A stretch of DNA of 20,920 bases from positions 1 to 20,920 of the IMG/VR virus record IMGVR_UViG_3300042449_002291; one strand, written 5' to 3'. Source of the stretch: a virus. Numbering within the stretch: position 1 is the stretch's first letter; the number at the start of each line of letters is the position of its first letter. The notes under the pieces are model-generated. The model saw only the letters and a list, made by a program, of their open reading frames with translations. It made no database searches and had not been told where the DNA came from. The translations under genes and the position numbers were made by a program. Below are positions 12,897 through 20,695 of this stretch, piece by piece.

Positions 12897-13478
12897 TTAT
12901 TCAAAAAACCCGCATCCTAGGTGTTTGCGACCTCCCAACCCTTTCTCTTGTAATATTAAAGACTCGTTAGGGCGCAAATCTGAAAACATTACAGGGTATA
13001 CAGCACACGGTTGCTTTTTAATAATTAGCTGCTCCTTGCGCCCTATTGTTGGCAGTGTATCAATATCAAACTTTGTTAGTTGCTTGCCTAGCGACACCGC
13101 AAACCTAGTAAGATCGGGTTCACGATTGTTGTCGGTTTTAATTGATACCCAAGCCGCTAGATTCTCTTGAGATTTTAGCTCTGTGCCATTAACCAGCTTG
13201 AGTTTAATCAACTCTTTGCCTAAATGGATTTGACAATCAAAAAGCATCGTTAGCTCTGTAATTAAATCTTTGGAGCAACGTAGCTTTATAGTGCTTTGAG
13301 TTAAACGTAATGTGCGATCGTCAAAAATATTTGTGTTACTGATTCTACCGATCGCCCACTCAGGGTTATCTTTGAGCTTAGGAGCTAATCCCGTTAAAGC
13401 AGAATAGAGGCAGTAATGGTAGTTTCTAGGGATTAAAGAGCCTTCAATACTGAAAAGAAATTCAATAAAGTTACTCAT
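12897..13478 (-). CDS. cas6: Cas6-like CRISPR RNA endonuclease (Cmx6-type), 193 aa
   Basis: Cas6 proteins cut CRISPR transcripts within repeats and often stay bound to the guide. The C-terminal block AVYPVMFSDLRPNESLILQE, then KGLGGRKHLGCGFF (179-192), is a textbook RAMP glycine-rich loop and is closest in pattern to the Cas6/Cmx6 group. The N-terminal part has PRNYHYCLYSAL (17-28) with H21 as a possible catalytic histidine, and DDRTLRLTQSTIKLR (53-67) fits the first ferredoxin-like fold. The protein is near full length for this group. The start overlaps the CysH stop as ATGA, so it is the last gene of the operon. No array to process is present in the window. The subtype call needs a profile search. 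Confidence 0.72.
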   Translation of the reverse strand: MSNFIEFLFSIEGSLIPRNYHYCLYSALTGLAPKLKDNPEWAIGRISNTNIFDDRTLRLTQSTIKLRCSKDLITELTMLFDCQIHLGKELIKLKLVNGTELKSQENLAAWVSIKTDNNREPDLTRFAVSLGKQLTKFDIDTLPTIGRKEQLIIKKQPCAVYPVMFSDLRPNESLILQEKGLGGRKHLGCGFFE

Positions 13479-14131
13479 TTTTTATTCCTTTGGTATTTGT
13501 GCATTTTTTCAATTCCACCTTGTCTAAATCCTGCATTATGAGTTAAATCTTTATTCTCAAGATCGTGAAATACACTGGTTCTAGACCGCCAATCATTCTC
13601 GTAACTTTGGAGATATGGCAGATTATATTTAGCGGTATAAGCCCAAATATCTTGCCAACTAAAACTTGCGATCGGACAGCATCTATAAAGGTTTTGGCGA
13701 TCGCCCGATTGATACTGATGAGTTACCCCATATTTGAGAATACTAATTAGTCGATGGCGATTTTCTTCTTTTCGCAATCCAAGAAAACAAAGGGGATTAG
13801 AATCAGCATATTTTAATCCCCATGTATCGCGCCCGTCCGATAAATCCCTTTGATAATTTGTTGGATTCTTCTTAAGATAATTAATCTCAACATCAGCATA
13901 ACTATCTTGATCGTATTGAGATTCACAACCCCAATGCACAGCCAAAATATCAGGACAAATCGACTGCACTAAATGTAGCATTACGACTGAATCTTTACCC
14001 CATGACACCGCAACATAAGAAGGAGCGATCGCTAAAGCCTCTCGAATAATCTCTTTAGCTTTCTCAACTTTGCGCTTAAATGTTGGCAGTGTCGCATGAG
14101 CCAAGAATGCATCGCGTTCTATTCTCTCCAT
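13475..14131 (-). CDS. cysH: CysH-like PP-loop (PAPS reductase family) protein of the csf operon, 218 aa
   Basis: Contains the PP-loop ATP-pyrophosphatase motif SWGKDS (43-48, usual form SGGKDS), the family block LGLRKEENRHR (117-127), CCPI (151-154) and SWQDIWAY (158-165). It lacks the C-terminal redox motif ECGLH of assimilatory PAPS reductases, so simple sulfate assimilation is unlikely. CysH-like proteins of this kind are the hallmark partner of type IV-B csf operons, where their function is unknown; relatives include DNA- or RNA-sulfurating PP-loop enzymes. The gene overlaps csf3 by 13 bases and cas6 by 4 bases, placing it firmly within the operon. Chemistry is inferred from the motifs. 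Confidence 0.82.
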   Translation of the reverse strand: MERIERDAFLAHATLPTFKRKVEKAKEIIREALAIAPSYVAVSWGKDSVVMLHLVQSICPDILAVHWGCESQYDQDSYADVEINYLKKNPTNYQRDLSDGRDTWGLKYADSNPLCFLGLRKEENRHRLISILKYGVTHQYQSGDRQNLYRCCPIASFSWQDIWAYTAKYNLPYLQSYENDWRSRTSVFHDLENKDLTHNAGFRQGGIEKMHKYQRNKK

Positions 14132-14805
14132 ACATTATCCGTTGGCATATAGCACATAGTTCTATTGGATTGCACAAAATACGGTGTTCGCCACCCCCAG
14201 TTCATCATATTGATAGATAGAGGCTGTGGAATCATATTAATTGGCATTGGTCGGGCTAAGCTTTCACCTCTCCACAAATGCCAATCATGTTCAAAAGGAA
14301 GTACTTCCCATTTGTGTACCTGTCCGCAACCTTGCGATCGCTTCTTGCCAAGGTTCGTAACATTTAGAATTAGTTCGCTAATCTTGTCAGCATTGCCAAT
14401 CGCAAACCAGTGTATAGTCTGCATTTCGCGATCATATCGTGGTAAATCATAGGCTTTAAAATGCCCTTGCGAACTATCAACCTTAGCTTTCTTTTTACCC
14501 CAATCAAGGTGTAGTTCTTGCTTGTCCCATCGCTTACGGTAACGCTGAGTTTGTTGATGATTTTCGATGTAGTGTGGTGAACTCACGGCCCAATACCACT
14601 CACCTTTGAGCGTCTTCCGAGCGATCGGCATTTCATCAAAAATCAATAACAGGTTCTTTTCAGCATCCGCAGCCGTTGGATTAGGCGTGATTAACCCTAA
14701 TTGATCTAACAATTGATACTCAATCAGAGCATCAAAGCTCGGACTCCAATCATCATAGGCAACTAGCGGCGTTGCCATGTGTGCGATTATTTGGAGGTTA
14801 TCCAT
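14119..14805 (-). CDS. csf3: Csf3/Cas5-like RAMP protein, 228 aa
   Basis: Cas5-type subunits cap the 5' end of the guide RNA in class 1 effector complexes. Here the N-terminal strand (LQIIAHMATPLVAYDDWSPS) is typical of Csf3, and the glycine-rich motif LGKKRSQGCGQVHKWEV (152-168) matches the Csf3/RAMP loop. Residues 86-128 carry a basic, aromatic stretch suited to RNA binding (RYRKRWDKQELHLDWGKKKA). The length matches Csf3. It overlaps csf2 by 8 bases and cysH by 13 bases. A Csf3 identity is supported by both motif and neighbours; a different RAMP family is possible. Confidence 0.7.
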   Translation of the reverse strand: MDNLQIIAHMATPLVAYDDWSPSFDALIEYQLLDQLGLITPNPTAADAEKNLLLIFDEMPIARKTLKGEWYWAVSSPHYIENHQQTQRYRKRWDKQELHLDWGKKKAKVDSSQGHFKAYDLPRYDREMQTIHWFAIGNADKISELILNVTNLGKKRSQGCGQVHKWEVLPFEHDWHLWRGESLARPMPINMIPQPLSINMMNWGWRTPYFVQSNRTMCYMPTDNVWRE

Positions 14806-16009
14806 TCAATAAACTCCTAATATCGCTCTTAGAATCCGCGAGAAAGCCTTTGTAATCTTCAATGTATTTTTTATACCTTGCATGAGATTCAGAGGCGCGA
14901 TCGCTTAATTTCTGAGCATGAGGTGTAATCGTCATAAACTCACCGCGATCGCCCTCCGCAGTCTCAAACCAAAACTGCATAGAGCATAGTCCGCAACCCG
15001 TTCCTGATTGACCGCCCAAGTATGGCGATTCTGCAAACTTGAGTAAAGCATCAGCAATAAATCCTTCTTCGATTCTGGTTACGTTTGCGCTCCAATAGGA
15101 ATACAAAGTTGCGCCTGTTTGGAGTAGCCAATTACCCATAATCATCTGTTGGCTTTTCTCTTTTTCGGGCTTTGCTTTTTCGCTTTTACCTTTCTTGGTT
15201 TCAGGCTCCGAAACTATACCAAATAGATCGCCTTGAGAAATCATCTTTTGAGGTTCTGGAGTAGCGCCGATCAAATGATTAGCAAAGTTAGGATCGTGAA
15301 GTGAATCGCGCCTTGTCTTTTGGCTATAGGTAAGCCAATCGGAATAATATCGAAGCCTTTCTCCCAAGAATGGTAGCCACTCATCAAGCAAAGCCTTGAG
15401 ATCGTAATTATTAACATCCGAAGGAGAACCATGATGTAGCCATTGGTTTACGCGTTGGCTGTGCTGCAAATCTTTGCCATCTATAATCTGCTCTAGTGCT
15501 GGTATGACTTCGATTGGCAACGCAGGGGGGAACATCTGATAAAGATACTTAGCGCTTTCTACACAAGCCAAATAAGCATCACCAACAGCGATCCGACCGT
15601 GCACCATTTGAGCATCGGATACACCAAATAATCCTTTAGGTTTGGCGGTTCCTAGTACTGAGAGGCATGGCAAAAACTGACGGATTTTTCTATCCAAATC
15701 CAAATCATTACCCGTGCCACCATCGATCGCACCGCCGCAAAATAGAGCGTGATGCATCGTTGGCGATACTTGCACACCAATCTGAGAGAGGAAAGAATCA
15801 ATACCACAGCGTCTCAAAATACGATTGCGTAGCGAGTTACCAGAAAGTGTGAAAACTTCAGAGGGATTTCCCTCTAAATCTGTCACTTTCATCGTTCGTA
15901 AATTGGTTTGATTGCCTACAGACTCACTGATATGGGACAAAGGCTGTAGCAGTGTAATCTGTAAGTGAAGCTTGATATTGTGGCGATCGTGGGGATTGTA
16001 ATTAAGCAT
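14798..16009 (-). CDS. csf2: Csf2/Cas7-like RAMP backbone protein, 403 aa
   Basis: Cas7-type proteins form the helical backbone that coats guide RNA. Recognisable blocks: N-terminal strand LHLQITLLQPLSHISES (14-30), LSGNSLRNRILRRCG (55-69), which is the Csf2/Cas7 helix, LPCLSVLGTAKPKG (113-126), VHGRIAVGDAYL (136-147), and a C-terminal glycine-rich GGQSGTGCGLC (332-342). A Lys/Glu-rich linker (about 271-287) interrupts the fold and makes the protein longer than a usual Csf2 (roughly 330-350 aa). No catalytic acid typical of RNA-cutting Cas7 proteins can be assigned by eye. It overlaps the genes on both sides by 8 bases. Confidence 0.72.
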   Translation of the reverse strand: MLNYNPHDRHNIKLHLQITLLQPLSHISESVGNQTNLRTMKVTDLEGNPSEVFTLSGNSLRNRILRRCGIDSFLSQIGVQVSPTMHHALFCGGAIDGGTGNDLDLDRKIRQFLPCLSVLGTAKPKGLFGVSDAQMVHGRIAVGDAYLACVESAKYLYQMFPPALPIEVIPALEQIIDGKDLQHSQRVNQWLHHGSPSDVNNYDLKALLDEWLPFLGERLRYYSDWLTYSQKTRRDSLHDPNFANHLIGATPEPQKMISQGDLFGIVSEPETKKGKSEKAKPEKEKSQQMIMGNWLLQTGATLYSYWSANVTRIEEGFIADALLKFAESPYLGGQSGTGCGLCSMQFWFETAEGDRGEFMTITPHAQKLSDRASESHARYKKYIEDYKGFLADSKSDIRSLLNG

Positions 16010-16532
16010 TGTTAGCCTCTACATCTAGAGTGTTTTCTGTTTCTTCTGGAATATTCAAAGCGCGATCGCTTTCAAAGCGAACACGACAGAAAGTAGTAAT
16101 AATGTGCGGTTTTGATTTACACAAACTGAGGATATGGCGATCGCTTATCCCGTGCGTATGTTTCAATTTGGCTAAAATGTCGTTCCATCCCAACCACCAA
16201 AGATCAATATTTTGATCGCTATCAATTTGCTGAATGTCTCCCATACTGCCATCATCATTCACAGTAGCCCGTAAAACCACTTGTTTTGGCGCGATTATGC
16301 GAGTCCATTCTTTTGGGTTGAGGTGTGCAACAATAAGCTTCTTGGCTAAATTCTCAATGTAGTCGTCGATATTGCGAGAGGGAATAGCAGCATTTTGGAT
16401 ACTGCTTTGAAAATATTCCCATGTTCTTAAGCCCATGGCAGGGCTTTTGCCCTTGTCTCTACAGCGAAAAACCCAATAACTAAGCGCACTGGCTAAAGCT
16501 GTAACCCTGTCTTCCGTTTCTATTCCATACAT
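16002..16532 (-). CDS. First gene of the csf-like operon: candidate small or large subunit, 176 aa
   Basis: I do not recognise this protein directly. It appears mostly helical in the first 75 residues (RVTALASALSYWVFRCRDKG, IDDYIENLAKKLIVAHL), with a middle strand PKQVVLRATV and a Trp-rich LWWLGWNDIL. Type IV operons normally start with csf1 (a zinc-finger Cas8-like protein) and, in IV-B, a helical Cas11. This protein has only three scattered cysteines and no zinc-finger pairs, so a Csf1 of the usual kind is unlikely and a Cas11-like small subunit is the better guess. The stop overlaps csf2 by 8 bases. The ribosome binding site is weak (GAGAAA). Its role is inferred from operon position. Confidence 0.45.
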   Translation of the reverse strand: MYGIETEDRVTALASALSYWVFRCRDKGKSPAMGLRTWEYFQSSIQNAAIPSRNIDDYIENLAKKLIVAHLNPKEWTRIIAPKQVVLRATVNDDGSMGDIQQIDSDQNIDLWWLGWNDILAKLKHTHGISDRHILSLCKSKPHIITTFCRVRFESDRALNIPEETENTLDVEANNA

Positions 16533-19675: not shown

Positions 19676-19912
19676 CTAAAGCCTCCTAATCTTCTGTAAA
19701 TCATCAGCATTGCAATTAAGCACATTGCAAAGCGCGTCAATTAGGTCAAATTCCAAGAACCTGTAATAACCCTGCTCTAACTTTTGGATTTTGCGTAGAT
19801 TGCATCCCTGTAGCTCTGCAAAATTAGCTTTTAGCCAAGCATCGCACTGCTTAGCTAATTCTTTTTGAGTTAGCGATCGCGCTTTGCGTAAGCGCTTTAG
19901 GTTTAGCTGCAT
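19676..19912 (-). CDS. XRE-family helix-turn-helix regulator, 78 aa
   Basis: MQLNLKRLRKARSLTQKELA, then QGCNLRKIQKLEQGYYRFLE, is a Cro/C1-type HTH with an insertion between helices 2 and 3 (AKQCDAWLKANFAEL). The C-terminus is a short dimerisation helix. I chose the ATG at 19912, as a longer 104-aa frame begins with unrelated Arg-rich sequence. It is the second gene of the leftward unit, close to the divergent operator region at 20137-20311, so it is the best candidate for the phage repressor or Cro-like switch protein. Confidence 0.75.
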   Translation of the reverse strand: MQLNLKRLRKARSLTQKELAKQCDAWLKANFAELQGCNLRKIQKLEQGYYRFLEFDLIDALCNVLNCNADDLQKIRRL

Positions 19913-20136
19913 GATTTTAGTTCTTGGTATTTGCGCTCTAATTCTGGTAGTTCGCATTCGAGATCCCCGTTGACGGTTAACTCGTACCATTTACCAGTAG
20001 ATTTAGAATAATGGTAAGAATATTGATCCAACTCTTTATTCCACCAAATACTAGAGTTATCTTCATTACGGACATACGCCGCACCTTCAAACTCTATCAA
20101 GGTTGTAGTTCTTGTGGTTTCTCTAATTATTTCCAC
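19903..20136 (-). CDS. Hypothetical protein, first leftward early gene, 77 aa
   Basis: No recognised family. Starts with GTG at 20136 behind GAGGT; an ATG one base away is out of frame and closes after three codons. Rich in Tyr, Trp and Glu (WWNKELDQYSYHYSKSTGKW), suggesting a small beta-sheet fold. It is the first gene from the divergent regulatory region and overlaps the XRE gene by 10 bases. Confidence 0.5.
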   Translation of the reverse strand: MEIIRETTRTTTLIEFEGAAYVRNEDNSSIWWNKELDQYSYHYSKSTGKWYELTVNGDLECELPELERKYQELKSCS

Positions 20137-20173
20137 ATTGTTACCTCATTAACTACTAATCACTATACTATCT

Positions 20174-20194
20174 ACTACCCCCCAAAAGGATACT
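20174..20194. promoter_or_regulatory. Operator copy 1 (leftward side)
   Basis: A 21-base imperfect dyad identical to copy 2 at 18 of 21 positions, with core CAAAAGGATA. It lies in the -35 area of the leftward promoter. A six-C run replaces the more symmetric left arm, so it may bind the repressor more weakly than copy 2. Confidence 0.6.
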
Positions 20195-20249
20195 TTTTAC
20201 TTATACGATTAGGTGAAAAGCAGTGATAATACTAATCATTTGTGTATTG

Positions 20250-20270
20250 ACTATCCCTCAAAAGGATAGT
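20250..20270. promoter_or_regulatory. Operator copy 2 (rightward side)
   Basis: Perfect dyad: ACTATCC, a 7-base centre, then GGATAGT. It fills almost exactly the space between the -35 (20247-20252) and -10 (20270-20275) boxes of the rightward promoter, so bound protein would block RNA polymerase. Confidence 0.7.
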
Positions 20271-20311
20271 ATCTTTAATACAGAAATTAACTTAGTAAAC
20301 AGGAAAACGCA

Positions 20312-20695
20312 ATGACCGCTACACAACTCGCACCAATCGCAGATGCAATCGAACTAGAGCTACAAGACTTGCGCGAAAACCACGAATACGAAAAGAATCA
20401 ATGCCAAGCGGCGATCGCTAAAGGTGACTTTGTAAGAGCATCGCGCTCTATGCATGAATGCATGATTTGGGAATATAATCAAAATTTTGCCAATCAATTC
20501 AATCTCGATAAAATCGAATGTGCCGCAAAATTTACTAATGAGATTCAAACCGTTATGGGTTCTTTGATGGCTAACATCCTTTGCACAGTATCGAATCCAC
20601 GCGCCGCCGATCTTGCTTTGCAAGACGCTCAAAAGGAGCAATACAAGTTTTTGGTTAAGGTGCAAAAGATGATCGCTCGTAGAGAGGCTGCTTAA
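20312..20695 (+). CDS. Hypothetical protein, first rightward gene, 127 aa
   Basis: No recognised family. ATG is preceded by AGGAAAACGCA. Mostly helical, with an early acidic helix (IADAIELELQDLRENHEYEK), a Met/Cys-rich middle (ASRSMHECMIWEYNQNF) and a C-terminal helix (KEQYKFLVKVQKMIARR). Position directly behind the operator-controlled promoter suggests an early or lytic-phase gene. Contains a HIP1 octamer within AAIAKGD. Confidence 0.55.
   Translation: MTATQLAPIADAIELELQDLRENHEYEKNQCQAAIAKGDFVRASRSMHECMIWEYNQNFANQFNLDKIECAAKFTNEIQTVMGSLMANILCTVSNPRAADLALQDAQKEQYKFLVKVQKMIARREAA

What the first reader, a model, noticed from the sequence alone, without database searches (positions are those of the whole stretch)
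20154..20275. Duplicated 21-base operators 76 bp apart forming a probable lysis-lysogeny switch
Two copies of a TACTAATCA box, 11 bases, then a 21-base dyad (18 of 21 identical) lie in the divergent gap. The perfect copy fits between -35 TTGACT and -10 TATCTT of the rightward promoter; the imperfect copy covers the -35 area of the leftward promoter. 76 bp is close to seven helical turns, so bound repressors would face the same side and could cooperate. An XRE-type regulator is encoded about 240 bases away.
Basis: partly seen in the sequence, partly recalled or inferred. Interest (0 to 1): 0.6.

Follow-up and report, generated by a model that had tools for sequence, protein, structure and literature searches.

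The report
Paired repressor operators in a cyanophage
Two matching repressor-binding sites, 76 bases apart, sit between two opposite-facing gene sets of a freshwater cyanobacterial virus; a related virus whose repressor reads a different word has changed both sites to match, so the switch is very likely real, but it is of an ordinary kind and nothing shows that it decides between lysis and dormancy.

Summary
TACTAATCA (20154-20162, 20230-20238), 11 bases, then a 21-base dyad (20174-20194, 20250-20270; 18/21 identical), 76 bp apart, well above chance. Fourteen related IMG/VR contigs keep both copies at exactly 76 bp, and the sites occur essentially nowhere else in contigs up to 80 kb. The right dyad fills the spacer of a conserved promoter, TTGACT-N17-TAnnnT; the left dyad overlaps the promoter region of the leftward genes, which include the 78-aa XRE protein.

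Best evidence is a natural operator swap. In L007 the XRE protein is 51% identical with five changes in the predicted recognition helix. Both dyads there have changed to the same new half-site (CTATCCCTT to CTANTCATT), while spacing, right promoter and upstream boxes stay. Other relatives change freely elsewhere in the protein without any change of dyad. So the XRE protein very probably binds both dyads and represses both promoters, its own included.

Not supported: 'lysis-lysogeny' (no integrase, resolvase or ParA found; no opposing repressor) and in-phase cooperativity (76 bp is 7.24 turns; the protein is too short for a CI-type cooperativity domain). The box does not follow the repressor. 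A new member of a known kind.

The parts
20174..20194 (.). Left operator O_L, ACTACCCCCCAAAAGGATACT (imperfect dyad), over the promoter region of the leftward genes
   Evidence: present in all relatives with the gap; altered together with O_R in L007
20250..20270 (.). Right operator O_R, ACTATCCCTCAAAAGGATAGT (perfect 7-bp arms), filling the spacer of the rightward promoter
20247..20275 (+). Rightward promoter P_R, TTGACT (20247-20252), N17, TATCTT (20270-20275); TAnnnT at -10 in relatives
   Evidence: conserved in the aligned relatives that keep this stretch
20162..20167 (-). Candidate -10 (TATAGT; TATAAT in L007) of the leftward promoter P_L, option a; no clear -35
   Evidence: by eye, inferred
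20226..20253 (-). Candidate leftward promoter P_L, option b: TAGTCA-N16-TATTAT; O_R would be centred near -41
   Evidence: TATTAT or TATTGT in relatives; inferred
20154..20162 (.). TACTAATCA box, copy 1
   Evidence: changed in L004, L008 and L024; not tied to the XRE type
20230..20238 (.). TACTAATCA box, copy 2, upstream of P_R
   Evidence: conserved in nearly all relatives, L007 included
19676..19912 (-). XRE (Cro/C1-type HTH) protein, 78 aa, proposed ligand of both operators and auto-repressor
   Evidence: Pfam HTH_31, HTH_26 and HTH_3 above cut-off; alignment A1; helix-by-helix comparison
19903..20136 (-). 77-aa ORF, first leftward gene (GTG start); no family match
   Evidence: a SpoU-type methylase gene lies between it (or the XRE gene) and the gap in L004, L005, L008, L009, L011
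20312..20695 (+). 127-aa ORF, first rightward gene; no family match, variable middle part; absent from L017-L019, L022 and L024

Best explanation
The gap 20137-20311 is a divergent control region with two operators for the 78-aa Cro/C1-type protein encoded at 19676-19912. A dimer on O_R (20250-20270) blocks RNA polymerase at P_R, whose spacer the operator fills. A dimer on O_L (20174-20194) blocks the leftward promoter that makes the XRE protein and the genes behind it, so the protein limits its own synthesis and shuts off the rightward genes in the same act. The half-site is CTATCCCTT. Shown here: the sites, their place in the promoter elements, their restriction to this gap, the conserved 76-bp spacing, and their joint change with the recognition helix in L007. 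Inferred: binding itself, repression rather than activation, and the exact leftward start. That the decision governed is lysis versus lysogeny is not shown; early-gene timing is at least as likely.
For: (1) Repeat far above chance. (2) Fourteen related contigs keep both dyads at 76 bp, and P_R stays TTGACT-N17-TAnnnT with the dyad in its spacer. (3) A tolerant scan of 17 records (4.9-80 kb) finds the motif only in this gap, apart from one isolated 2-mismatch hit in G008; none with the pattern read backwards. (4) L007: XRE 51% identical, five of ten residues of helix 3 changed (NLRKIQKLEQ to STQKISRLEQ), and all four half-sites changed to TCA at positions 5-7; changes are concentrated in the dyads (20/42 against 16/75 in flanks, Fisher p = 0.003), and a shared new triplet in all four half-sites is expected in about 1e-4 of neutral simulations. 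(5) L004, L006, L022 and L024 carry 5-6 changes in helix 2 and 5-6 in the turn but at most one in helix 3, and keep the CTATCCCTT-type dyad. (6) L024 holds a nearly perfect palindrome, TATCCCTTTAAGGGATA, as a dimer site would predict. (7) The XRE protein passes the Pfam cut-offs for Cro/C1-type HTH.
Against: No binding data. The operator swap is one event in one genome (L007), and that XRE protein also differs outside helix 3. The recognition helix is assigned from family alignment; the AlphaFold model has pLDDT 51 and only gives matching helix positions. The leftward promoter is not pinned down. Larger relatives encode a second, Cro-like XRE protein, which could also act here.
Confidence: 0.8

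Rival explanations
1. A true lysis-lysogeny switch: the XRE protein is the prophage repressor, silencing rightward lytic genes in a dormant phage.
For: Divergent promoters with shared operators and a Cro/C1-type regulator; larger relatives carry Bro-N and KilAC antirepressor-type genes and a RecT gene, common in temperate phages.
Against: No tyrosine integrase, serine recombinase or ParA in nine records up to 80 kb (fragments, so not final); no convincing relative in the GTDB genome collection (three weak HTH matches in non-cyanobacteria); the XRE gene is co-oriented with, and ahead of, dCTP deaminase, CRISPR-type and DnaB genes, so a repressor holding the rightward genes off would be made together with early genes; P_R's first gene is replaced or P_R itself lost in some relatives (L017-L019, L022, L024).
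Confidence: 0.2
2. lambda P_RM-like logic: the leftward promoter is option b (TAGTCA-N16-TATTAT), and protein on O_R, centred near -41, activates it while repressing P_R; O_L, about 35 bp downstream, sets the upper limit.
For: scores option b; its -10 keeps TAnnnT in relatives; -41 is about where lambda CI sits to activate P_RM (general knowledge).
Against: The TATAGT/TATAAT element of option a is conserved too and lies at a usual distance from the ribosome site; no activation patch can be tested.
Confidence: 0.2
3. The dyads are RNA hairpins (terminator or attenuator) rather than DNA operators.
For: The right copy is scored as terminator-like.
Against: It lies between -35 and -10, upstream of the start; no continuous T run; in L007 both copies take on the same new half-sites, which a hairpin would not require.
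Confidence: 0.03
4. The dyads are origin or partition sites bound by a replication or segregation protein.
For: Divergent gaps can house origins (general knowledge); two direct repeats.
Against: Only two sites, both placed on promoter elements; they follow the recognition helix of the XRE protein; no ParA found.
Confidence: 0.04

Closest known systems
lambdoid CI/Cro immunity regions (lambda, 434, P22)
   Same: Divergent promoters in a short gap, palindromic operators over promoter elements, Cro/C1-type HTH regulator
   Different: Two sites 76 bp apart instead of three close ones; one regulator beside the gap and none opposite; 78-aa protein without a CI-type C-terminal domain; no lysogeny genes found
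PY54 Cro and its single operator OR3 (PMC4488713)
   Same: Small Cro-type protein with a high-specificity palindromic site; relatives differ in a few operator base pairs that set specificity
   Different: PY54 has one 16-bp site and a separate prophage repressor; here two 19-21-bp sites lie on both divergent promoters
Autoregulated XRE repressors in general (RstR/DicA/HipB-type HTH)
   Same: Short HTH protein with weak sequence matches to the HipB-like and RstR models; operators in its own control region
   Different: None of the NCBIfam cut-offs is reached; no toxin partner or filamentous-phage context

Membership tests
Cro/C1-type (XRE) HTH transcription regulators | Pfam HTH domain above curated cut-off | tested here: met
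   HTH_31 30.8 (cut-off 27), HTH_26 28.2 (22), HTH_3 25.0 (23) bits
Cro/C1-type (XRE) HTH transcription regulators | Specificity lies in helix 3 and tracks a palindromic operator | tested here: met
   One natural case: L007 changes helix 3 and both dyads; other relatives keep both. Sequence evidence only
lambda-type CI/Cro bistable switch | Two opposing repressor genes sharing operators | tested here: not met
   The rightward 127-aa and 58-aa ORFs have no HTH match; the second Cro-like gene of larger relatives lies elsewhere, about 7 kb away in G001 and G005, with its own divergent gap
lambda-type CI/Cro bistable switch | CI-type repressor with C-terminal oligomerisation domain | tested here: not met
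   78 aa, HTH over most of its length
lambda-type CI/Cro bistable switch | Temperate genome (integrase or partition genes) | tested here: inconclusive
   PF00589, PF00239, PF13614: none in nine records, but all may be fragments
lambda-type CI/Cro bistable switch | Cooperative binding of operator-bound repressors | not testable with these tools
   Spacing is 7.24 turns, against simple in-phase contact; binding not measurable here
Autoregulated divergent operator region | Operators overlap both divergent promoters and the regulator's own transcript | tested here: inconclusive
   P_R spacer filled by O_R (met); O_L lies next to a conserved leftward -10 candidate and the XRE gene is first to third leftward in relatives, but the leftward start is inferred, not mapped

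The most novel reading that the evidence does not exclude
A one-repressor, two-operator switch conserved in a group of freshwater cyanophages sets the timing of a leftward transcript that carries a phage-borne type IV CRISPR-like effector (csf2, csf3, cas11, cysH, with cas6), with repressor specificity changing by wholesale, matched replacement of both operators so that related phages do not cross-regulate.
Probability: 0.25. Interest if true: 0.5.

Novelty: new member of a known kind. Interest (0 to 1): 0.35.

Why it matters
The literature searches run here found no described operator system of this kind for cyanophages (open-licence papers only). The L007 case gives a ready, testable pair of repressor and operator specificities, and the leftward transcript leads into a type IV CRISPR-like gene set of unknown function.

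Tried and rejected
No DNA match in annotated phages and no tblastn match for the XRE or 127-aa protein. Scan of GTDB genomes gave only weak, unrelated HTH matches. Profile scans and a flank pattern left free at the dyad found no contigs beyond those already seen, so only one altered-operator relative is available. The PDB sequence search gave only chance-level matches. The AlphaFold model was too poor for a fold search. Terminator and origin readings were considered and set aside. The TACTAATCA box as part of the XRE operator was rejected: it stays in L007 while the dyads change and is altered in L004, L008 and L024.

Full report
Observation. The gap 20137-20311 separates leftward genes (77-aa ORF 19903-20136, XRE 19676-19912 and further) from a rightward 127-aa ORF (20312-20695). 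In Markov simulations of the gap, an 18/21 repeat appears in 0.1% and the 39-base match in none, whereas a 7-bp palindrome alone appears in 17%; it is the duplication, not the dyad, that is improbable.

Relatives. Protein and pattern scans of IMG/VR gave 16 other contigs with this region. Fourteen keep both dyads, always 76 bp apart; L022 has a deletion that removes box 2, the -35 and most of the right dyad, and L025 ends before it. Several contigs are near-identical, so these are not 14 independent cases (11 distinct gap sequences with both copies, counting the window). A tolerant scan of whole records up to 80 kb found the motif only here, save one isolated 2-mismatch hit in G008.

Promoters. 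P_R is TTGACT-N17-TAnnnT in the aligned relatives that keep it, and the dyad always runs from the end of the -35 to the start of the -10. Leftward there are two candidates: a conserved TATAGT/TATAAT without -35, and TAGTCA-N16-TATTAT. Sequence cannot choose between them. Either way the XRE gene would be transcribed from this gap; in L007 it is the first leftward gene.

Which protein binds. Alignment A1 and a helix-by-helix count show helix 3 almost fixed (NLRKIQKLEQ, at most one change) in relatives with CTATCCCTT-type dyads, even where helix 2 and the turn carry 5-6 changes each. L007 alone has five changes in helix 3 (STQKISRLEQ), and L007 alone has different dyads: CTAGTCATTTATTGATTAG and CTATTCATTAGATGAGCAG. 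All four half-sites there read TCA at positions 5-7; the window's read CC followed by C or T. The differences are concentrated in the dyads (20/42 against 16/75; Fisher p = 0.003); a shared new triplet arose in 1.25e-4 of neutral simulations. The spacing, P_R and box 2 are unchanged. This is a natural operator swap, though a single one, and it ties both dyads to one protein, most simply the adjacent XRE.

What is not supported. No integrase, serine recombinase or ParA-type gene was found, but the records may be incomplete. Larger relatives carry a second Cro-like gene (66-73 aa), in G001 and G005 followed by a Bro-N-type gene, with its own divergent gap and without these dyads; if the phages are temperate, the decision may lie there. 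The rightward gene is no regulator by family search and is missing from L017-L019, L022 and L024. 76 bp is 7.24 turns at 10.5 bp, so the sites face about 86 degrees apart. The box does not track the repressor; it may be a relic of the duplication or serve another factor.

Context. The window carries 37 GCGATCGC sites against 0.3 expected, a mark of cyanobacterial DNA (general knowledge), and the terminase of relative G001 is nearest to a Leptolyngbya phage and other cyanophages of Microcystis and Anabaena. The leftward genes run with gaps of at most about 80 bases (read) from the XRE gene to a cas6 gene at 12897, through dCTP deaminase and a type IV CRISPR-like set, so P_L may feed them; this is inferred.

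Verdict. Real, conserved, and best read as the two operators of an autoregulated XRE repressor on divergent promoters; ordinary in kind, with an unusually clear natural specificity swap.

Noticed in passing
window 12897-16532, minus strand: Type IV CRISPR-like gene set: Cas11-like (16002-16532), Csf2/Cas7 (14798-16009), Csf3/Cas5 (14119-14805), CysH-like (13475-14131), Cas6 (12897-13478). CysH and Cas11 point to IV-B, but IV-B is described as lacking a crRNA-processing enzyme (PMC8175902); no csf1 was recognised among the ORFs tested and no array was found in the window. Csf2 is 94-98% identical in nine of twelve related contigs.
   Followed up: partly
L005 3387-3818, and the same place in L004, L008, L009, L011: A SpoU-type RNA 2'-O-methylase gene is inserted as first leftward gene, between the operator gap and the 77-aa/XRE genes.
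   Followed up: partly
L066 1486-2450 (G001), L067, L068: Second Cro-like regulator (66-73 aa) with its own divergent gap; in G001 and G005 the next gene shares an N-terminal part (Bro-N in G001), while most of the rest differs between the two.
   Followed up: partly
window 20312-20695 and relatives (alignment A2): The 127-aa rightward protein has fixed ends and a middle block (about residues 54-83) that comes in two unrelated-looking versions across relatives, as if exchanged by recombination.
   Followed up: no
L022 around the gap: Natural deletion removing box 2, the P_R -35 and most of O_R, while O_L and the leftward genes remain.
   Followed up: no
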